From positions 1 through 64,000 of the IMG/VR virus record IMGVR_UViG_3300047476_001426: a stretch of 64,000 nt of DNA. One strand, 5' to 3'. Position 1 is the first letter of the stretch. Each line of letters starts with the position of its first letter. Below, piece after piece: positions 13,793-60,502 of this stretch. Source of the DNA: a virus. The position numbers and the translations under genes were made by a program. A model generated the notes under the pieces. It made no database searches. It was not told the origin of the DNA and worked only from the letters and a program-made list of their open reading frames with translations.

Positions 13793-15547
13793 ATGCAGAG
13801 TAAGATTCCTGAAATAGATGCGAGGAATATTCTTTCCACTTATGAGGGGTTTAATAACCAACTAATTGAGTGGAAAAGAAAATTAATTGAACTTAAAGGT
13901 TTTCAATTAACAAGACCTCAAGCCGAGTATGTTTTAAAGTACCACGAAGTAGTTCCTCGTGTTGCTAAAAAGTATATTCACATTGTTGAAGGATTTGGTG
14001 ATAAACTCATGGAATCTAAACACCTAACAAAACCACCTGAAAAAATTTGGTGTGAAAAGTTGTTGTGTGAAAGTGAGATGGCTTATCATATATGGGGTAA
14101 AGTATTTGAGTCAGAAAAGAACTATTCAATGTGGGTCCCAAAATCTGCGATTATTCAAGAAGAAAAGAAATTGAATAGAGAGGTTGATTATTCTCCTTAT
14201 GACAAACGACCACCATTACCACATCAAAAAACCGCAATTGAAAAATTATTGGCTAACGATAAGTTTATCCTGGCGGATGATATGGGATTAGGTAAGACCA
14301 CATCCGCAATTATTGCTTCTTTGGAAAGTGGTGCAAAAAAGATTTTAATAATTTGTCCTGCGTCATTGAAAATAAATTGGCAAAGAGAAATTGAAAATTA
14401 CTCAAATAGAAAAACATTAATAGTTGAAGGTCGTAAGTGGGGTTCCACTTTTGATTATTACATTATTAACTATGATATCGTAAAAAACTATCATTCAACA
14501 GAAACACCTGAAATTGGACAGGAAAATAATAATTCAATTGTTAATGAAAAATTTGATTTAGCCATTGTCGATGAAGCACATTATATTTCAAATACGACCG
14601 CTCAAAGAACTAAACTAATTAACGATATTTTAAAGAACATACCAAAAGTTTGGTTACTTACTGGCACCCCAATGACTTCAAAACCAATTAACTATTATAA
14701 CCTACTAAGAATAGTTAATTCAAACGTTACTTTAAATTGGCAGGGTTACGTCAGAAGATATTGTGGTGGATATCAGTTTACCGTAAATAAGAAGAAGATT
14801 TGGAATACGGGTGGTGCAACTAATTTAGATGAACTTAGGTTGAGAACTAAAAATCTTGTACTGAGACGTATGAAGACTGATATATTGGATTTACCTGATA
14901 AAATTATCACCCCAATATTTTTGGATTTAAAAAGTACATATTACGATGAAGAATTGGAAGATTTTTTAAGAATCACAAGTGAGGCAAAAAATAAAGAATC
15001 TTTAAGTATCACCATAAATCGTTTGATGAAAGTGAGACAAATTATTTCACAAGAAAAAATTAGTTATACCTGTGAACTAATTGATAAGTGTTTGGAACAA
15101 GGAAAGAAGATAATTGTGTTTACAAATTTTACAATGTCCTTAGACATGTTACATGAAAAATATAAGAAAAATTCTGTGGTGTTAGATGGTAGAATGTCCA
15201 AAGAAAAAAGACAACAATCTGTAGACCGTTTTCAAAATGAAGACAAGGTGAAGATATTCATATCAAACATCGTAGCGGGTGGAGTGGGAATCACATTAAC
15301 CGCGGCCGAAGTTGTAATTATGAACGATTTATCATTTGTACCCGCTCACCACAGTCAAGCTGAGGATAGAGCTTTTAGATATGGTCAAAAGAAAAATGTG
15401 TTGGTTTATTACCCAATATTCGAAAACACTATTGAGAAAATAGTGTACAATATGTTACAAAAGAAAAAGAATATTATTGACCAAGTTATGGGTGACGGAG
15501 ATTTCTCAGAAAGTTTTGCTCAATCACTTCTCAAAGAGATTCTCTAA
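13793..15547 (+). CDS. SNF2-family DNA helicase/translocase
   Basis: 584 aa from MQSKIPEIDA. Although the frame is open 26 codons upstream, this start leaves room for the promoter and avoids overlapping the neck gene. Residues about 140-320 hold helicase motifs Q/I (PPLPHQKTAIE, LADDMGLGKT), DEAH (260-263) and LTGTP (289-293). The C-terminal RecA lobe has IIVFTNF, FISNIVAGGVGITLTAAE and RAFRYGQ. This is the SNF2/SMARCAL1-like architecture, probably a branch-migration or fork-remodelling ATPase in phage replication and recombination, a role filled by UvsW in T4. The 3' end overlaps the convergent gene by 24 bases. Confidence 0.9.
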   Translation: MQSKIPEIDARNILSTYEGFNNQLIEWKRKLIELKGFQLTRPQAEYVLKYHEVVPRVAKKYIHIVEGFGDKLMESKHLTKPPEKIWCEKLLCESEMAYHIWGKVFESEKNYSMWVPKSAIIQEEKKLNREVDYSPYDKRPPLPHQKTAIEKLLANDKFILADDMGLGKTTSAIIASLESGAKKILIICPASLKINWQREIENYSNRKTLIVEGRKWGSTFDYYIINYDIVKNYHSTETPEIGQENNNSIVNEKFDLAIVDEAHYISNTTAQRTKLINDILKNIPKVWLLTGTPMTSKPINYYNLLRIVNSNVTLNWQGYVRRYCGGYQFTVNKKKIWNTGGATNLDELRLRTKNLVLRRMKTDILDLPDKIITPIFLDLKSTYYDEELEDFLRITSEAKNKESLSITINRLMKVRQIISQEKISYTCELIDKCLEQGKKIIVFTNFTMSLDMLHEKYKKNSVVLDGRMSKEKRQQSVDRFQNEDKVKIFISNIVAGGVGITLTAAEVVIMNDLSFVPAHHSQAEDRAFRYGQKKNVLVYYPIFENTIEKIVYNMLQKKKNIIDQVMGDGDFSESFAQSLLKEIL

Positions 15548-21869: not shown

Positions 21870-22910
21870 TTAATAAGTCTGTGATGTTTGCCATGTGTTT
21901 CTCGCAACAGTCGCACTAAAACCGGACACCGTATGTAATGTTGTCCATGTCGTACCATTGTTACTTCCAGCTATTGTCCAAGATTTTGGGTCCCTACCTT
22001 CTTCATCATTAGCGGTAGCCCATCTATATCCCGTAAACGCCCTTGCAGTTGAAAATTGGAATATAAAGTTGGTTACATTTCCATTTGACACAAAATTTAA
22101 ATCTAGAGCTTTCAGTGATAAACTACCATCAACTAATTTTGATGGTTCCTCACCCACGGGATTATTACCACCTGGATTTGTCACAGTTACAGTACCCCAA
22201 GATTGGTCCACACCACCTATTTGAAATGCAAATTCGGATGATTGAACCGCGTTAGCGTTAGGTGGCATTATCTTGGTTTCTGTGATTTGCCATCTATAAT
22301 ACGTAAATGCGGGTCTTGATGGTGTTGGAGTAATTGATGGAGTTACTGATGATGTTGGTGTAACCGATGGTGTCCTACTTGGAGTGACCGATGGGGTTAG
22401 AGATGGTGTTCTACTTGGTGTTACTGATGGTGTTGGTGTTACAGAAGGAGTTACACTTGGCGTTACAGATGGAGTTACTGATGGGGTAACAGAGCTAGTA
22501 ACAGATGGTGTAACACTCGATGTTGGTGTTACGGAAGGTGTTTTACTTGGTGTAAGTGATGGTGTGATAGATGGAGTTGACGTTAATGAAGGTGTTACCG
22601 ACATAGTTGGTGTAACAGTCGGTGTCGGTGAAGGTCCCGTTTCAATTATTATTTTAGAATAATTTTCTTGGAAAATATAATCACCATTTTCTTGTAATAA
22701 GAAATTACCCGAAAGGTCCTCAACATATAAAGTACATGTACTACCAAAAGCCGGAAAAAACAATGAATATGTCCCATAAAAATAAGGCGCAACATAATCG
22801 TATGGTAAAACTTGTGTACCCAAATTAATAGTCCCACCCGTATCGGGATAGTATGTAATAACCGCCGATTGACCAGTATAATTTGTTGAGACTATTTTTA
22901 AAGTATCCAT
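21870..22910 (-). CDS. Adhesin with TPSV-repeat stalk and discoidin-like C-terminal domain
   Basis: 346 aa in three parts: an N-terminal beta domain (1-90), a low-complexity stalk of SVTP/TPS repeats (92-199), and a C-terminal domain (202-346) with [36 protein letters not shown] and [20 protein letters not shown]. The last part resembles F5/8 type C (discoidin) or CBM32 carbohydrate-binding folds. The layout of attachment head, rigid stalk and lectin tip fits a virion fibre that binds host surface sugars. Thr/Ser/Pro stalks can be glycosylated, and three glycosyltransferase genes are present nearby. No typical late motif is visible directly upstream. Confidence 0.7.
22314..22637 (-). repeat. 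In-frame low-complexity repeats coding TPSV/TPS
   Basis: About 320 bp of degenerate 9- to 12-bp repeats coding for SVTPSVTPS-type sequence. Synonymous codon differences between copies show that the amino-acid repeat, not the DNA, is being conserved. Such tracts can gain or lose units by recombination. Confidence 0.8.
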
Positions 22911-45829: not shown

Positions 45830-46513
45830 TTATTTACCCAAATAAGTATCTAACTTGGACATTAGATTTTTCATCCTATCCGAGTCTACGGGTTTTTCTT
45901 GAATTGATTCTTGATATTGGTCTCTGTCCTTTAAATCGGCAAAAACATACGCACCTGGCGTACTTGGGGATGATACTAAGTCAAAACAAACTAATTCAAA
46001 ATCTTCTTGAACTATGTTTTGACCTTTGATGTTTTTTAATGAACCCACACCTCTTGAAGAAATACCAAGAGTTGCACCATTCATTAATAACATTGCAGCT
46101 TGGTCCCCTTTGGTACTAACTATACCCATTTTCTTCCAAGCGGGAGAAGTAAATAATTTAATCTTACCCATCAAGATTTTTCCATCCCACCATGTTTCTA
46201 ATATGGAATGTGAAACTCTATCTAAATCGATAAGGGAAGATGTTGGGTGATTTAATTCATTTAACGCACTACCTTTTTTAATTAAGGTTTGATATTTTTC
46301 GTTTTCTCTTTTTAAAATGCTTTCAGGATATATTCTACCGTTTTTATTTGGGGTATCATATTTTTGCAAAACTGCGTAAAGGATTATATCTTGTGAATAA
46401 TCCACATCCTTCATTTCAGAAATTATTTTCTGATTCTCTAATGGTGATATATAACCGGCATCGTATTCTATTAGTATACCTTTACCGGTTTCGTTTGGGC
46501 CGAGTATTTTCAT
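45830..46513 (-). CDS. 21: Prohead maturation protease gp21-like
   Basis: 227 aa, serine protease of the herpes/T4 prohead class. The catalytic His is in GSALNELNHPTSSLIDLDRV (about residue 89) and the Ser in GATLGISSRGVGSLKNI (about 154). It cleaves scaffold and capsid precursors during head maturation and then itself. The start MKILGPNETGKGILIEYDAG is typical of these proteases. Near its C-terminus it carries DRMKNLMSKL, nearly identical to the scaffold end. A late motif variant lies 13 bases upstream of the ATG. Confidence 0.93.
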   Translation of the reverse strand: MKILGPNETGKGILIEYDAGYISPLENQKIISEMKDVDYSQDIILYAVLQKYDTPNKNGRIYPESILKRENEKYQTLIKKGSALNELNHPTSSLIDLDRVSHSILETWWDGKILMGKIKLFTSPAWKKMGIVSTKGDQAAMLLMNGATLGISSRGVGSLKNIKGQNIVQEDFELVCFDLVSSPSTPGAYVFADLKDRDQYQESIQEKPVDSDRMKNLMSKLDTYLGK

Positions 46514-47070: not shown

Positions 47071-47271
47071 ATGATAATCGTAAACGTCAGTAAAGAGAAG
47101 AACCTTGAATCTGCATTAAAAAAATACAAATACAAGGTTCAAAAGACTAAACAAAATGATAAATTGAGGGAGAAACAGGAATATACCAAACCCTCAGTTG
47201 CTAAAAGAAGTAAAAAGTTAAAAGCCATCTACAAACAACAATTATTCACGAATCAAGAAAAATCAAATTAG
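47071..47271 (+). CDS. rpsU: Ribosomal protein bS21-like
   Basis: 66 aa: MIIVNVSKEKNLESALKKYK, then YKVQKTKQNDKLREKQEYTK and PSVAKRSKKLKAIYKQQ. This is the whole bS21 fold pattern (short strand, ALxxYK helix, basic helix with EYxKPSVAxR) and the KPSVAxR form is the one found in Bacteroidota bS21. bS21 binds the 30S platform near the anti-Shine-Dalgarno end of 16S rRNA. It is a lone plus-strand gene inside the minus-strand head cluster and overlaps the convergent 246-aa gene by 9 bases. A TATATTTA box lies 10 bases upstream but its -33 element is poor. Confidence 0.82.
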   Translation: MIIVNVSKEKNLESALKKYKYKVQKTKQNDKLREKQEYTKPSVAKRSKKLKAIYKQQLFTNQEKSN

Positions 47272-55155: not shown

Positions 55156-55941
55156 TTACTGCGGTAGGGACAATTTTTTATTTCTGACCTTGGTTTTTAT
55201 ATCAAATAACTTCTCGATATAACCATTTCTTCTTAATAACTTGAAAGTTAAGTTTTCGTAGGAGTATTCACCTCCCACCTCTAATCCTGTTTGTCTGAAC
55301 TTTTTTAACTTATTCTTTAGTTCATCAACTTGTTTAATAACATCCTTACCTTCTTCTGCTTCCTTATCCAATTTATCAATTAACTTACCATACTCCTCAC
55401 TCTTTTCGATTATTTTCTTATCGTCTAAGTCAAACGCAGATTCCACTTTTTTAGGTTCAACAACCCAATCATTATTTAATATGGAATAAACACCGGTGGA
55501 TATACCGGGTGAGTCAATATCTTGTACATAAAATTCCACCTCAAAACCTTTAACCCTAATGTCATTCGATGAAGACCATGCTTTTTTCTTTAATTCGAAA
55601 AATTCTTGGATTATTTCATGAAAAACAATAGAATTGGATTTAGCGGAATCAAATTCATCAATATCAATGATGATATGAATATCTAAATCAGAGTATTTCG
55701 ACCAATTGTAATTTGCTAAAGAACCTGTAAAATGGATGTCGTAAATAAAAAAATCAATACCAAGAAAATCAAGAAACGCGTTTGTGTTTTCTAAAAGTTT
55801 CTCTCTAATTTCTTCTTTTAAGATGTAAGAATTTTTTGTCTTATCAAAAATTTCCAATGAAAGAGAATCCTTAGGAATAAAGGATTTCATTATTTCTTTG
55901 TCTTTTTCAACGTCTTCAATAAATTCTCTATAATGTTTCAT
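55156..55941 (-). CDS. Nucleotidyltransferase-like protein (Pol-beta superfamily)
   Basis: 261 aa. Residues about 70-95 read IHFTGSLANYNWSKYSDLDI, matching the GSxA-x-YxW-SDxDxH motif of minimal nucleotidyltransferases, with a third acidic residue supplied by FEVEFYVQD downstream. Both metal-binding Asp residues are present, so it could transfer a nucleotide to an unknown acceptor. The C-terminal half is helical and charged. It overlaps the KTSC gene by 4 bases. Similar genes are common in T4-like phages, without known function. Confidence 0.75.
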   Translation of the reverse strand: MKHYREFIEDVEKDKEIMKSFIPKDSLSLEIFDKTKNSYILKEEIREKLLENTNAFLDFLGIDFFIYDIHFTGSLANYNWSKYSDLDIHIIIDIDEFDSAKSNSIVFHEIIQEFFELKKKAWSSSNDIRVKGFEVEFYVQDIDSPGISTGVYSILNNDWVVEPKKVESAFDLDDKKIIEKSEEYGKLIDKLDKEAEEGKDVIKQVDELKNKLKKFRQTGLEVGGEYSYENLTFKLLRRNGYIEKLFDIKTKVRNKKLSLPQ

Positions 55942-56215: not shown

Positions 56216-56336
56216 TCAAATAAAAAACCCGAGACGAATAAGTGGTATTTTTTGATTATGTTTGTAATGACCATATTCCGTGAATGCGTTTTAGACAATA
56301 TATCATTTTTATTTTTATACATTGAAAATGTCATTG

Positions 56337-56384: not shown

Positions 56385-58403
56385 ATGTCAGTAGATTTTT
56401 TCGAAGAAGGAAATGTTTCCAACCCCAAAAAGACGAGAAAGGGTTCTACCACCCCTATCCTTGATAATTTTTCAAGGGATTTAAACAAAATGGTTGAAGA
56501 AGGTAAAATTGACCCCGTCATCGGTAGAGATGGTGAGGTTAAGAGAATCGCTCAAATTTTATCTCGTAAAAAGAAAAACAACGTAGTAATTGTTGGTGAC
56601 GCAGGTGTTGGTAAATCTGCTTTGGTTGAAAAGTTGGCCCAACTAATTGTTAAGGGTGACTGCCCTTCAAATCTTTTAGATAAAAGGATTGTGTCACTTG
56701 ATTTGACATCATTAGTTGCTGGTACCAAATATAGAGGTCAATTTGAAGAAAGGATTAAGGCCATACTAAATGAATTACAAAACGAACCCAATGTAATTGT
56801 GTTTATTGATGAAATACATACGATGGTTGGTGCGGGTAATGCTAGTGGTTCCATGGATGCTGCTAATATCATGAAACCAGCTTTGGCGAGAGGTGAAATC
56901 CAATGTATCGGTGCAACCACCTTTGATGAATTTAAGAAACACATTGAGAAGGACGGTGCGTTGGTAAGAAGATTCCAAAAAATAATTTTAAAGGAACCGA
57001 CTAAAGAAGAAACGGTACAAATTTTAAATAACTTGAAGGAGTCATATCAAAACTTCCATAAAGTATTTTATGAACCGAATGTGTTTGAAACGATTGTTAA
57101 TCTTTCATCTAGATTTATCACAGATAGACAATTTCCTGATAAGGCGATTGATGTTATGGATGAACTTGGTTCAGACAAAAAAATCAACACCAAAATCCCT
57201 GAAGTGTTGGAAAAACTCAAAAAAGATTCTGACGAGCTAAAGGAAAGAAAAATACAGGTTGTTAAAAGTCAAAATTATGAACAAGCAGCAAAATTGAGGG
57301 ATGAAGAAAGGAAGATATTGAGTAGGTTAGATGAAGAGAAGAAAAAATGGTTGGAAAAACAAAAGGACAATAAAACACCCGTAACTATAGACGATGTATA
57401 TGATATTATCTCGCAAATGACAGGTGTGCCACTCTCTAAAATTGACGAGAGGGAGACAACAAACTTATTAAGTTTAGAAGAAAAATTAAAATCAAAAGTG
57501 ATTGGACAAGATGAGGCCATCTCAATCATATCAAAATCTATCAGAAGAAATAGAGTTGGTATTAAAGATACCAACAAACCTATTGGTTCGTTTATATTCT
57601 TAGGTTCAACAGGTGTTGGTAAAACCTACTTAGCTAAATCAATTGCAGAAATTTTATTTGGTGACCCTGATAAAGTTATACGAGTTGATATGAGTGAGTA
57701 CATGGAAAAACACAATGTTGCTAAACTAATAGGTTCTCCTCCGGGTTATGTTGGGTATGATGAAGGTGGTCAATTGACTGAAAAAATAAAAAACAATCCA
57801 TTTTCAGTTGTCCTATTTGATGAGGTTGAAAAGGCACATAAAGATGTCTTCAATATCCTACTTCAAATTTTGGACGAAGGTCACCTAACAGACTCCTTTG
57901 GTAGGAAGGTAAACTTCACAAATACAATTGTGATTATGACATCAAACATTGGTGCAAAAAAGGTTTCCGAATTTGGTAGAGGAGTTGGTTTTGACTCATC
58001 ATCATCAAACACACAGAATTTTGAAGTTAAAAAATCAATTGTTCAAAAATCTTTGAAACAACATTTTAACCCCGAGTTTTTAAATAGGGTTGATGACATT
58101 ATCAGTTTCAATTCGTTAGATAAAGACGTTATTAAACAAATTATTGGAATTGAACTGAATAAATTGGTTGTGAGATTGAAAGACAAAAACTTCAAAATTT
58201 CATTTGATAAAACAATCATTGAAAGAATTTCAGAACTCAACACACAAGAAGATTATGGTGCTAGACCTATTAAAAGAATCATTCAAAACCTTTGTGAAGA
58301 CTTCTTAAGTGATTCAATTTTGAAAGGTGATATTAAAGAAAATGAAAACATTACTTTGAAATTTAAAGATGGTGAAATAAAAATTTTTAAAAAAAAGGTC
58401 TAA
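56385..58403 (+). CDS. ClpC-like AAA+ unfoldase lacking the N-domain (672 aa)
   Basis: It has two AAA+ modules. D1: GDAGVGKS (71-78), VIVFIDEIH (137-145), LVRRFQKI. A UVR-type motif, QNYEQAAKLRDEER (296-309), lies between the modules and marks ClpC rather than ClpA or ClpB. D2: GSTGVGKT (407-414), SVVLFDEVEKAH, FLNRVDD. After the TSNIGA segment it keeps GVGFD (VGF at 534-536), the kind of loop that docks ClpC onto ClpP. Host ClpC (about 840 aa) begins with two Clp-N repeats that receive adaptors; these are absent and replaced by about 20 residues. The gene is alone, early-type and probably host-derived. Confidence 0.92.
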   Translation: MSVDFFEEGNVSNPKKTRKGSTTPILDNFSRDLNKMVEEGKIDPVIGRDGEVKRIAQILSRKKKNNVVIVGDAGVGKSALVEKLAQLIVKGDCPSNLLDKRIVSLDLTSLVAGTKYRGQFEERIKAILNELQNEPNVIVFIDEIHTMVGAGNASGSMDAANIMKPALARGEIQCIGATTFDEFKKHIEKDGALVRRFQKIILKEPTKEETVQILNNLKESYQNFHKVFYEPNVFETIVNLSSRFITDRQFPDKAIDVMDELGSDKKINTKIPEVLEKLKKDSDELKERKIQVVKSQNYEQAAKLRDEERKILSRLDEEKKKWLEKQKDNKTPVTIDDVYDIISQMTGVPLSKIDERETTNLLSLEEKLKSKVIGQDEAISIISKSIRRNRVGIKDTNKPIGSFIFLGSTGVGKTYLAKSIAEILFGDPDKVIRVDMSEYMEKHNVAKLIGSPPGYVGYDEGGQLTEKIKNNPFSVVLFDEVEKAHKDVFNILLQILDEGHLTDSFGRKVNFTNTIVIMTSNIGAKKVSEFGRGVGFDSSSSNTQNFEVKKSIVQKSLKQHFNPEFLNRVDDIISFNSLDKDVIKQIIGIELNKLVVRLKDKNFKISFDKTIIERISELNTQEDYGARPIKRIIQNLCEDFLSDSILKGDIKENENITLKFKDGEIKIFKKKV

Positions 58404-58445: not shown

Positions 58446-58545
58446 CAGGACATCTTTGCCGATTTCCTCTCGTTTTTATAGTCTGTGGTGTTGAAACCAC
58501 AAAATGACCACAAACCCCCGACTCACCGTTGGGGGTTTTTTATTT
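58446..58545 (+). ncRNA. Candidate late small RNA ending in a terminator
   Basis: About 100 bases between a late-type motif and a terminator with no credible coding frame. It contains hairpin TGTGGT-GTTGAA-ACCACA (58484-58501) and a second ACCACA at 58507-58512 that could pair with the same TGTGGT instead. It could alternatively be the long 3' end of the ClpC-like mRNA. Confidence 0.4.
58512..58543 (+). terminator. Rho-independent terminator downstream of ClpC-like gene
   Basis: Stem AAACCCCC/GGGGGTTT with an 11-base loop, followed by a T-run. It separates the ClpC-like gene from the RNA repair cassette. Confidence 0.85.
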
Positions 58546-58594: not shown

Positions 58595-59008
58595 ATGGAA
58601 TATACAAAAGATTTGATACTTGTTCGTGGTATCCCGGGTTCTGGTAAATCGACTTTGGGTGAGGTAATATTATACACCCCAAATAATCCAATGAAACCTT
58701 TATCTGCGGATGATTACTTCATGGATAAAGAAGGTAATTACAACTTTGACCCCTCAAAAATAAGGGAGGCCCATAACGACTGCCAACAAAGATGTGCAAA
58801 CCTGATGATGAATTCAGTTGTCAGAGTTGTGGTTTCAAATACATTCACTCAAGAATGGGAAATGGAACCATATTTTGAAATGGGTCGTCGATATGGTTAT
58901 AGAGTCCATACAATCATTGTTGAAAATAGACACGGTGGTGAGAATGTTCATGGGGTCCCTGAAGACAAAATAGACATAATGAAAAACCGATTTGAAGTTA
59001 AGTTGTGA
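58595..59008 (+). CDS. Polynucleotide kinase-like P-loop kinase (137 aa)
   Basis: Reads KDLILVRGIPGSGKSTLGEV with Walker A GIPGSGKST (about 12-20), SADDYFMDKEGNYNFDPSKI, then REAHNDCQQRC, VVVSNTFTQEWEMEPYF and ENRHGGENVHGVPEDKI. This is the AAA_33-type kinase related to the 5' kinase domain of T4 Pnkp. T4 Pnkp also has a C-terminal 3' phosphatase domain, which is absent. It would phosphorylate 5'-OH ends of RNA or DNA. The stop overlaps the GTG start of the RNA ligase gene, so the two are coupled. Confidence 0.85.
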   Translation: MEYTKDLILVRGIPGSGKSTLGEVILYTPNNPMKPLSADDYFMDKEGNYNFDPSKIREAHNDCQQRCANLMMNSVVRVVVSNTFTQEWEMEPYFEMGRRYGYRVHTIIVENRHGGENVHGVPEDKIDIMKNRFEVKL

Positions 59009-60075
59009 TAGATAGACTGAAAAAATATCATGAAGATGGGTTGTTAATGAGACAAACACACCCAACTAAAGATTTGTACATATGGAATTATACCCCAAGA
59101 GTACAGTATGAATCTTTATGGGATGATATTACTACGCAATGTCGTGGACTCATTACAACTCATTCAGGTGAAGTCATATCAAGACCATTCGGTAAGTTTT
59201 TTAACTATGAAGAGGTTATTGATAAGGATTTAATTCCATGGGACAGTGAGTATGCTCACGTTCAAACAAAAATGGATGGTTCTCTTGGTATATTGTTTTT
59301 TTATGATGGTGAATGGATTATGGCAACAAGAGGTTCATTTACATCTGAACAATCAATTCGAGGATTAGAGATTATAAAATCAAAATACGATTTGAGTAAG
59401 TTTTCTGAGAAATTCACTTATCTATGTGAAATAATTTATCCTGAGAATAGAATCGTGGTAAATTACGGTGAGGATAAAATCACATTCTTATCTATAACCA
59501 CTCCTGAATCAGAATTAAATTGGGCAACATCAATAGCAATATTCCATTCATCAGATATCAAAGAAGAGGACATTGTTGATAGTACTATGGTGACCTTCAA
59601 TAAAGAAACTTTTGAAACTTACAAAAATCTAAACATACCAAATGAAGAGGGATTTGTTATTAGGTTCTACCCTTCTAATTTTAGAATGAAAATAAAGTTT
59701 GAGGAGTATGTTCGTTTACATAGAATATTAACGAATGTGTCTAATAGAGATATATGGGAAGTGCTCCGTACCAATGGTGATATGAAGGAAATACTTGATG
59801 GTGTACCAGATGAATTTTACGATTGGGTTCGCAAAACTAAAGAAGATTTATTATTTCAATACAAACACTTGGAACGTGAATATCAATGGATTTTTAAAAT
59901 CATTAATAGAGCACCCAACATAGAAAATCGAGCGGTTTTCGCGGAATACGCAAAAAGATATAAACACCCTTCAATATTGTTTAATATGTTGGATAATAAG
60001 GATTACTCTCAACAAATTTGGAAGTTAATCTATCCTTCGTATTCGAAACCATTTAATACAAATGAAGATAATTAG
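59005..60075 (+). CDS. T4 Rnl1-like RNA ligase (356 aa)
   Basis: Starts with GTG overlapping the kinase stop (GTGA). The nucleotidyltransferase motif I is HVQTKMDGSLGILFF, with the AMP-accepting Lys at about residue 89. Motif IIIa/IV is NEEGFVIRF and motif V is RMKIKF. An all-helical C-terminal domain follows (DEFYDWVRKTKEDLLFQYK), as in Rnl1 enzymes that repair tRNA. It seals 5'-phosphate and 3'-OH RNA ends, typically after kinase and cyclic-phosphate removal. Direct coupling with the kinase and cREC genes supports an RNA repair role. Confidence 0.9.
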   Translation: MIDRLKKYHEDGLLMRQTHPTKDLYIWNYTPRVQYESLWDDITTQCRGLITTHSGEVISRPFGKFFNYEEVIDKDLIPWDSEYAHVQTKMDGSLGILFFYDGEWIMATRGSFTSEQSIRGLEIIKSKYDLSKFSEKFTYLCEIIYPENRIVVNYGEDKITFLSITTPESELNWATSIAIFHSSDIKEEDIVDSTMVTFNKETFETYKNLNIPNEEGFVIRFYPSNFRMKIKFEEYVRLHRILTNVSNRDIWEVLRTNGDMKEILDGVPDEFYDWVRKTKEDLLFQYKHLEREYQWIFKIINRAPNIENRAVFAEYAKRYKHPSILFNMLDNKDYSQQIWKLIYPSYSKPFNTNEDN

Positions 60076-60502
60076 TAAGAAAAATTATTCAATGAAAACA
60101 AGAATTTATTTGGACGATGTGAGAACACCTGTTGAAAAAGACCAATGGGTTGTTGTTAGGAATTACGAGGAGTTCGTAAATAAAGTTAGTGAGATTGGTT
60201 TGGAGAACATCTCCTTAATATCGTTAGACCATGATTTAGGGGAAACCGCAATGGCGGAATGGCATCGTAATGTTTATCACAACTACGAGTTAGATTACGA
60301 TAATATCCTTGAGAAAACAGGAATGGATTGCACCAAATGGTTGGTTGAACAATGGATGGACGGTAAACCTGTTGTTGACGTTGTTGTCCACTCCGCGAAT
60401 GCGATTGGTAGTGGTAACATGATGGGTTATATTAACAATTATCGACATATTAATAGACTACCTCAGAATTGTATTAGGGTTCAGATTGAACACACTGTCT
60501 AA
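60062..60502 (+). CDS. Cyclic-phosphate processing receiver-like protein (cREC)
   Basis: 146 aa from the first ATG, which overlaps the ligase gene by 14 bases; an ATG at 60092 (MKTRIYLDDVRTP) is an alternative start. Motifs: RIYLDDVRTP, SLISLDHDLGETAMAE, and VDVVVHSANAIGSGNMMGYI. These match the cREC family, a receiver-like fold predicted to process 2',3'-cyclic phosphate ends in RNA repair systems. Here it could replace the missing phosphatase domain of T4 Pnkp and generate the 3'-OH needed by the ligase. The conserved Asp, His and HSAN residues are intact. Confidence 0.78.
   Translation: MKIISKKNYSMKTRIYLDDVRTPVEKDQWVVVRNYEEFVNKVSEIGLENISLISLDHDLGETAMAEWHRNVYHNYELDYDNILEKTGMDCTKWLVEQWMDGKPVVDVVVHSANAIGSGNMMGYINNYRHINRLPQNCIRVQIEHTV

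What the first reader, a model, noticed from the sequence alone, without database searches (positions are those of the whole stretch)
56385..58403. Phage ClpC without its adaptor domain but with a ClpP-docking loop
Both ATPase modules, the UVR-type middle and a VGF tripeptide in the loop region are present, while the Clp-N repeats are missing. Such a protein could seize host ClpP and bypass host adaptors, degrading host or defence proteins or turning over phage ones. Its early promoter fits host takeover.
Basis: partly seen in the sequence, partly recalled or inferred. Interest (0 to 1): 0.7.

Follow-up and report, generated by a model that had tools for sequence, protein, structure and literature searches.

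The report
Jumbo-phage ClpC lacking its N-terminal domain
A large virus of Bacteroidota bacteria carries a stripped-down copy of a bacterial protein-unfolding motor that keeps its protease-docking tip, and its more completely sequenced relatives also carry the matching protease, so the virus probably brings its own protein shredder rather than only borrowing the host's.

Summary
The 672-aa ORF at 56385-58403 (+) is a ClpC-type double AAA+ unfoldase with both ATPase modules, the UVR/M-domain coiled coil, and a VGF tripeptide exactly where B. subtilis ClpC has its ClpP-docking VGF. No Clp-N domain is present in the ORF or the 136-kb record. This is a family trait, not a truncation: 41 representatives (<96% identical) all lack it, and all keep [V/L/M]GF and the catalytic and pore residues.

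The interpretation needs changing. The record is a fragment of a jumbo phage (bS21-encoding type). All 11 related contigs long enough to test encode both clpC and a phage ClpP, 104-127 kb apart; the ClpP triad is intact in 80/80. The likeliest partner is therefore the phage's own ClpP; host ClpP remains possible. Losing the NTD does not by itself give a free-running protease: NTD-deleted S. aureus ClpC binds ClpP but forms inactive rods while its M-domain aromatic is intact, and the phage keeps that aromatic (Tyr298, 41/41). In relatives a host-type promoter and often paired palindromes precede clpC; both are degenerate in this window.

Phage "Clp protease" annotations are already published; this architecture with its paired ClpP is a new variant. 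No function was tested.

The parts
56385..58403 (+). clpC-like gene, 672 aa, NTD-less double AAA+ unfoldase
56385..56453 (+). N-terminal tail (residues 1-23, M[S/A/P]V[D/E]F.. then Lys/Arg-rich) that takes the place of the Clp-N domain; conserved start, predicted disordered
56586..57305 (+). first AAA+ module (D1, residues 68-307): Walker A GDAGVGKS, pore loop KYRG, Walker B IDEIH, Arg finger region VRRF
57201..57365 (+). M-domain / UVR-type coiled coil (residues 273-327) with Tyr298, the position of S. aureus ClpC F436
57576..58355 (+). second AAA+ module (D2, residues 398-657): Walker A GSTGVGKT, pore loop GYVG, Walker B FDEVEK, D2-small lid
57984..57992 (+). VGF tripeptide (residues 534-536) in the ClpP-docking loop
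56337..56368 (+). promoter-like element TTTG-N20-TATACTTA, at the place where many relatives have the Bacteroidota form TTTG-N20-TAnnTTTG
56294..56304 (.). degenerate copy (GACAATATATC, one mismatch) of the GACANNNTGTC palindrome that is conserved upstream of clpC in relatives
58512..58538 (+). terminator-like hairpin with T-tail after clpC

Best explanation
The protein is the ATPase half of a phage-encoded two-component ClpCP protease. It should form a hexameric ring, thread proteins through its two sets of pore loops, and dock by the VGF loop onto a ClpP barrel. The most likely barrel is the phage's own ClpP, encoded 104-127 kb away in related genomes and expected outside this fragment; host ClpP is a possible second partner. 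Because the NTD is missing, substrates are not delivered by NTD-binding adaptors or phospho-arginine marks; they probably enter by direct pore recognition of exposed tails or through phage factors not yet identified. Activity is probably restrained by M-domain head-to-head contacts (Tyr298). Shown here: architecture, family-wide conservation, and ClpP co-occurrence in relatives. Inferred: docking, choice of partner, regulation, substrates, and the role in infection.
For: ClpC-type architecture and exact VGF register. [V/L/M]GF 41/41 and invariant Walker, pore and Arg residues. Flexible loop in the model; top fold matches are ClpC-ClpP and MecA/ClpC/ClpP complexes. Phage clpP in 7/7 contigs reaching at least 125 kb upstream of clpC and clpC in 4/4 testable clpP contigs (distances by arithmetic on their coordinates). 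Catalytic triad in 80/80 phage ClpP. Most ClpP pocket positions as in host Bacteroidota ClpP. NTD-deleted S. aureus ClpC does bind ClpP (PMC12583610).
Against: No ClpP in the window's own 136-kb record, although the expected site lies outside it. clpC and clpP are not in one operon, so pairing rests on co-occurrence. The phage ClpP pocket tyrosine is replaced by His in the group, which could alter docking. The homologous engineered deltaN-ClpC with intact M-domain aromatic is not proteolytic.
Confidence: 0.62

Rival explanations
1. One reading: the protein works with host ClpP only, displacing host ClpC/ClpX and redirecting host proteolysis.
For: VGF identical to that of host Bacteroidota ClpC; no clpP in the 136-kb record; early-type promoter in relatives.
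Against: All 11 testable related contigs carry a phage clpP; the window simply does not reach the place where it lies.
Confidence: 0.15
2. ClpP sequestration: with the M-domain aromatic intact and no NTD, the protein forms head-to-head ring dimers that chain with ClpP into inactive rods, silencing Clp proteolysis (of host ClpP, or as a store of phage ClpP).
For: Exactly this was seen for S. aureus deltaN-ClpC (PMC12583610); Tyr298, Glu299, Arg305 and Asp306 are 41/41.
Against: Both ATPase sites and both sets of pore loops are invariant, which a passive sink would not need; the phage also encodes an active-looking ClpP.
Confidence: 0.1
3. ClpP-independent chaperone or disaggregase, ClpL-like, acting in folding or virion assembly.
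For: ClpL also forms ring dimers by MD-MD contacts through a homologous aromatic (PMC12583610); jumbo-phage reviewers proposed assembly roles for phage ClpA/ClpX (PMC7824862).
Against: The ClpP-docking tripeptide is retained in every representative, within a loop whose neighbouring residues vary, and a phage ClpP co-occurs.
Confidence: 0.09
4. The co-occurring 'ClpP' is a head-maturation protease of ClpP fold and unrelated to ClpC.
For: Its best PHROG hits are head maturation proteases.
Against: It scores about 187-191 bits on the ClpP Pfam family, aligns over residues 27-223 with ClpP structures, and the window has a separate candidate prohead protease at 45830-46513 in the published bS21-phage gene order.
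Confidence: 0.04

Closest known systems
Cellular ClpC of Bacteroidota (also B. subtilis and S. aureus ClpC)
   Same: Two AAA+ modules, short M-domain with the aromatic-Glu-x-Ala-Ala-x-x-Arg-Asp pattern, VGF-type docking loop; 52-56% identity to Bacteroidota ClpC.
   Different: About 170-200 residues (Clp-N repeats and linker) are replaced by a roughly 23-residue tail; phage family on its own long branch.
Engineered S. aureus deltaN-ClpC (PMC12583610)
   Same: Same domain content, M-domain aromatic kept.
   Different: Natural and conserved across a phage family, with a phage ClpP in relatives; activity unknown.
'Clp protease' of freshwater Bacteroidetes bS21 jumbo phages (PMC9723584)
   Same: Same kind of phage: bS21 opposite the terL/portal/prohead protease/MCP block; Clp protease mentioned among proteostasis genes.
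   Different: The main text does not describe the missing NTD, the docking loop or the ClpC-ClpP pairing; its supplements could not be read.
ClpA/ClpX/ClpP/ClpS genes of RaK2-like and other jumbo phages (Muenster, Atu_ph07; PMC6102473, PMC7824862)
   Same: Phage-encoded Clp components.
   Different: ClpA-like, longer proteins with an N-terminal region (Muenster 769 aa, 38% identity), without the ClpC-type M-domain in the alignment.
NTD-less ClpC of huge phages LR756502, LR745206, LR756508
   Same: NTD absent, [V/I]GF loop and M-domain aromatic kept, ClpP genes present.
   Different: Not in the window clade in the trees; possibly separate origins, not proven.
SPO1 Gp53 (PMC6873191)
   Same: Phage control of ClpC-dependent proteolysis.
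   Different: Gp53 is an adaptor-like protein acting on host ClpC; here the phage supplies the unfoldase.

Membership tests
ClpC (canonical) | Two AAA+ modules with intact Walker A/B, pore loops and Arg fingers | tested here: met
ClpC (canonical) | Short UVR-type M-domain with the aromatic head-to-head contact (F436 of S. aureus ClpC) | tested here: met
   UVR 284-311; Tyr298 in 41/41
ClpC (canonical) | ClpP-docking [V/I/L]GF loop | tested here: met
ClpC (canonical) | N-terminal Clp_N repeats (adaptor and pArg binding) | tested here: not met
   so it is a ClpC-derived NTD-less unfoldase, not a canonical ClpC
ClpC (canonical) | ATP-dependent unfolding and ClpP binding | not testable with these tools
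   needs biochemistry
ClpCP protease (two-component) | Cognate ClpP with Ser-His-Asp triad encoded in the same genome | tested here: inconclusive
   11/11 testable relatives yes; the window record does not reach the site
ClpB disaggregase | Lacks the ClpP-docking tripeptide; long M-domain | tested here: not met
   VGF present; short M-domain; ClpB/ClpA equivalog cut-offs not reached
ClpL | ClpC-like M-domain without Clp_N, and no ClpP-docking loop | tested here: not met
   docking tripeptide present in 41/41; absence of the loop in ClpL is from my own knowledge
bS21 jumbo phages of Bacteroidetes (PMC9723584) | bS21 encoded opposite to the terL/portal/prohead protease/MCP block | tested here: met
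   bS21 at 47071-47271 (+) in the minus-strand block; no tree with their genomes was made

The most novel reading that the evidence does not exclude
A self-sufficient viral ClpCP protease orthogonal to the host's: an adaptor-free, NTD-less ClpC paired with a phage ClpP whose conserved gate/pocket tyrosine (E. coli Tyr62, S. aureus Tyr63) is His in the sampled group. Since Tyr-to-Ala there opens the ClpP gate (PMC8182300), the phage peptidase may be pre-opened or matched only to its own unfoldase, giving a protease freed from host control during infection.
Probability: 0.22. Interest if true: 0.75.

Novelty: new variant of a known kind. Interest (0 to 1): 0.52.

Why it matters
The gene is a natural version of the deltaN-ClpC mutants built to learn what the N-terminal domain does, and it is kept across a large phage family. 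It makes a concrete question testable: how can a Clp unfoldase lose its adaptor- and mark-reading domain yet stay useful, and is the M-domain still its brake? If jumbo phages carry a complete ClpC-ClpP pair, protein turnover in infected cells may be run by viral proteases and not only by hijacked host ones.

Tried and rejected
Truncation or assembly artefact: rejected; the 80 related full-length loci (74-98% identical) begin at the same short tail. ClpB misassignment: rejected by the short M-domain, the VGF loop and ClpC as closest solved relative. Clp-N encoded separately: none in the record or in 35 related or huge-phage records. Several independent NTD losses: the trees favour it, but AU tests do not reject one origin (p 0.25 and 0.153), so it is not claimed. 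Relaxed NTD-contact residues as a test: weak; only E359 (Glu 80/80 in host ClpC, Glu 24/Gln 17 in phage) looks relaxed, while D356, E435 and N462 already vary in host ClpC. A genome-wide GACANNNTGTC regulon: over whole records the exact motif is not clearly above the reversed-pattern control, so only the cluster before clpC is claimed. The strict 13-base form shows no excess in the window. sigma-70 scan: no excess over shuffles. ClpP pocket decay: at first the phage ClpP looked stripped of the E. coli pocket aromatics, but host Bacteroidota ClpP lacks most of the same ones, so only Tyr62-to-His, Phe30-to-Trp, Leu48-to-Met and Leu189-to-Val/Ile are phage-specific. Several 'phage' records (Staphylococcus, Listeria, faecal contigs) look like bacterial contamination and were not used as phage evidence; one of them (L174) served as S. 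aureus ClpC for numbering.

Full report
What is there. The ORF at 56385-58403 (+) encodes 672 aa. Pfam finds AAA (68-202), AAA_lid_9 (206-307), UVR (284-311), AAA_2 (398-572) and ClpB_D2-small (578-657), and no Clp_N. PHROG 4871 ('ATP-dependent protease') matches at E 1.4e-243; no ClpA or ClpB NCBIfam cut-off is reached. The nearest solved proteins are B. subtilis and S. aureus ClpC, aligned from just after their N-terminal domain, with VGF 534-536 on the B. subtilis VGF. The closest cellular proteins found are Bacteroidota ClpC at 52-56% identity. An AlphaFold model (mean pLDDT 76.2, pTM 0.51) has two AAA+ modules and a coiled-coil M-domain; residues 1-19 and 529-537, which hold the VGF, are disordered. 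Foldseek ranks ClpC-ClpP and MecA/ClpC/ClpP entries first.

Is it more than chance? A scan of IMG/VR gave 582 stretches that encode relatives, of which the best 80 were kept. Their ORFs all begin at the same short tail, of the type M[S/A/P]V[D/E]F. Among 41 representatives below 96% identity, Walker, pore-loop and arginine residues are essentially invariant. The loop reads V33/L7/M1 at 534, Gly 41/41 at 535 and Phe 41/41 at 536, whereas following residues vary. So the NTD is missing as a family trait, and the docking tripeptide is conserved.

Whose ClpP? The window's record is a 136-kb virus contig without ClpP or Clp_N. Among 31 related IMG/VR records, seven hold clpP: G003, G005, G006, G010, G011, G016 and G023. 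From the coordinates these are exactly the contigs that extend at least 125 kb upstream of clpC; the other 24 reach at most about 106 kb. In the seven, clpP lies 107-122 kb upstream on the opposite strand. In the reverse direction, of 15 long contigs with clpP only four extend far enough on the clpC side, and all four carry clpC at 104-127 kb. Thus 11 of 11 testable contigs carry both genes. The window reaches only 56 kb upstream, so the absence is expected. The closest testable kin have ClpC 92-93% identical to the window's.

The phage ClpP is about 224 aa, aligns with ClpP structures over residues 27-223 and keeps Ser, His and Asp in 80/80. Compared with 11 host Bacteroidota ClpP-family proteins, pocket positions are mostly shared. 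Fixed phage changes lie at E. coli Tyr62 (His 17/17; host Tyr 11/11), Phe30 (Trp), Leu48 (Met) and Leu189 (Val/Ile). The list of pocket positions is also from memory. A review states that the equivalent tyrosine (Tyr63 in S. aureus and B. subtilis) controls the gate and that Tyr-to-Ala opens it (PMC8182300). The effect of His is unknown.

How it most likely works. S. aureus deltaN-ClpC binds ClpP, unlike wild type, but forms head-to-head rods through the M-domain contact residue F436 and shows no proteolysis; deltaN with F436A is an active protease, more toxic, with more relaxed substrate choice (PMC12583610). The phage protein is a natural deltaN-ClpC whose F436 equivalent is Tyr in 41/41; most Bacteroidota ClpC also have Tyr there. 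I therefore favour a phage ClpCP that takes substrates directly through the pore or through unknown phage factors, with the M-domain as remaining brake. Docking is strongly implied by conservation; partner, substrates and regulation are inferred. The inactive-rod model is kept as a serious rival.

Control region. Many relatives have a TTTG-N20-TAnnTTTG element shortly before the ATG, the form known for Bacteroidota promoters (own knowledge); the window keeps the first box with a weak second box. Exact GACANNNTGTC palindromes occur 30 times within 160 bp upstream of clpC, in 25 of 41 representatives (35 with one mismatch allowed), often as two sites 31-32 bp apart. Base-shuffled sets average 0.01, and the same loci have none elsewhere. 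Across whole records other sites are near background. A terminator-like hairpin follows the gene, so clpC may be transcribed alone.

What phage it is. A bS21 gene at 47071-47271 (+) lies within the minus-strand terL, portal, prohead-protease and MCP block (the block assigned by terminase similarity, by position and by comparison). This is the arrangement reported for freshwater bS21 phages of Bacteroidetes, with 293-331-kb complete genomes (PMC9723584). That paper names a Clp protease among their proteostasis genes, and other jumbo phages have annotated ClpA, ClpX, ClpP or ClpS. Phage Clp genes are therefore known. I found no text describing this NTD-less ClpC, its pairing with ClpP or the docking loop, within an open-access library and without supplements.

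Gene order. The genes around clpC are conserved: the divergent KTSC-domain and 261-aa genes are next to it in 40 of 40 comparison loci, and terL lies 4.6-6.5 kb away in the 36 loci that reach it.

Origins. The window family is one well-supported clade apart from the sampled Bacteroidota ClpC. Huge phages LR756502 and LR745206 have another NTD-less ClpC that groups with a Flavobacteriales protein (95/81), suggesting a second origin, but AU tests leave one origin open (p 0.25 and 0.153).

Verdict. New variant of a known kind; nothing here tests function.

Noticed in passing
47071-47271 (+): Ribosomal protein bS21 gene (66 aa) encoded opposite to the surrounding structural genes, marking this as a bS21-type Bacteroidota jumbo phage.
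   Followed up: partly
56294-56304; upstream of clpC in relatives such as L037, L048, L058, L073, L082: GACANNNTGTC palindromes, often two copies 31-32 bp apart, before clpC in 25 of 41 representatives and nowhere else in those loci; looks like an operator for an unknown regulator.
   Followed up: partly
58595-60502 (+): RNA-repair-like cluster downstream: AAA_33 kinase, T4-type RNA ligase 1 and a cREC 'cyclic-phosphate processing receiver' domain protein; widely kept near clpC in relatives.
   Followed up: partly
55156-55941 (-): 261-aa protein with no Pfam match, with a nucleotidyltransferase-like GSxxxx(x)SDLD(I/L)H stretch by eye; divergent to clpC and conserved there in 40/40 loci.
   Followed up: no
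13817-15544 (+): SNF2-family helicase lying among structural genes of the opposite strand.
   Followed up: no
21870-22910 (-): 346-aa protein with a long TPS/VTPS repeat tract, perhaps a fibre or surface protein.
   Followed up: no
L180:1363-2034: Phage ClpP with His in place of the gate/pocket tyrosine (17/17 sampled; host 11/11 Tyr).
   Followed up: partly
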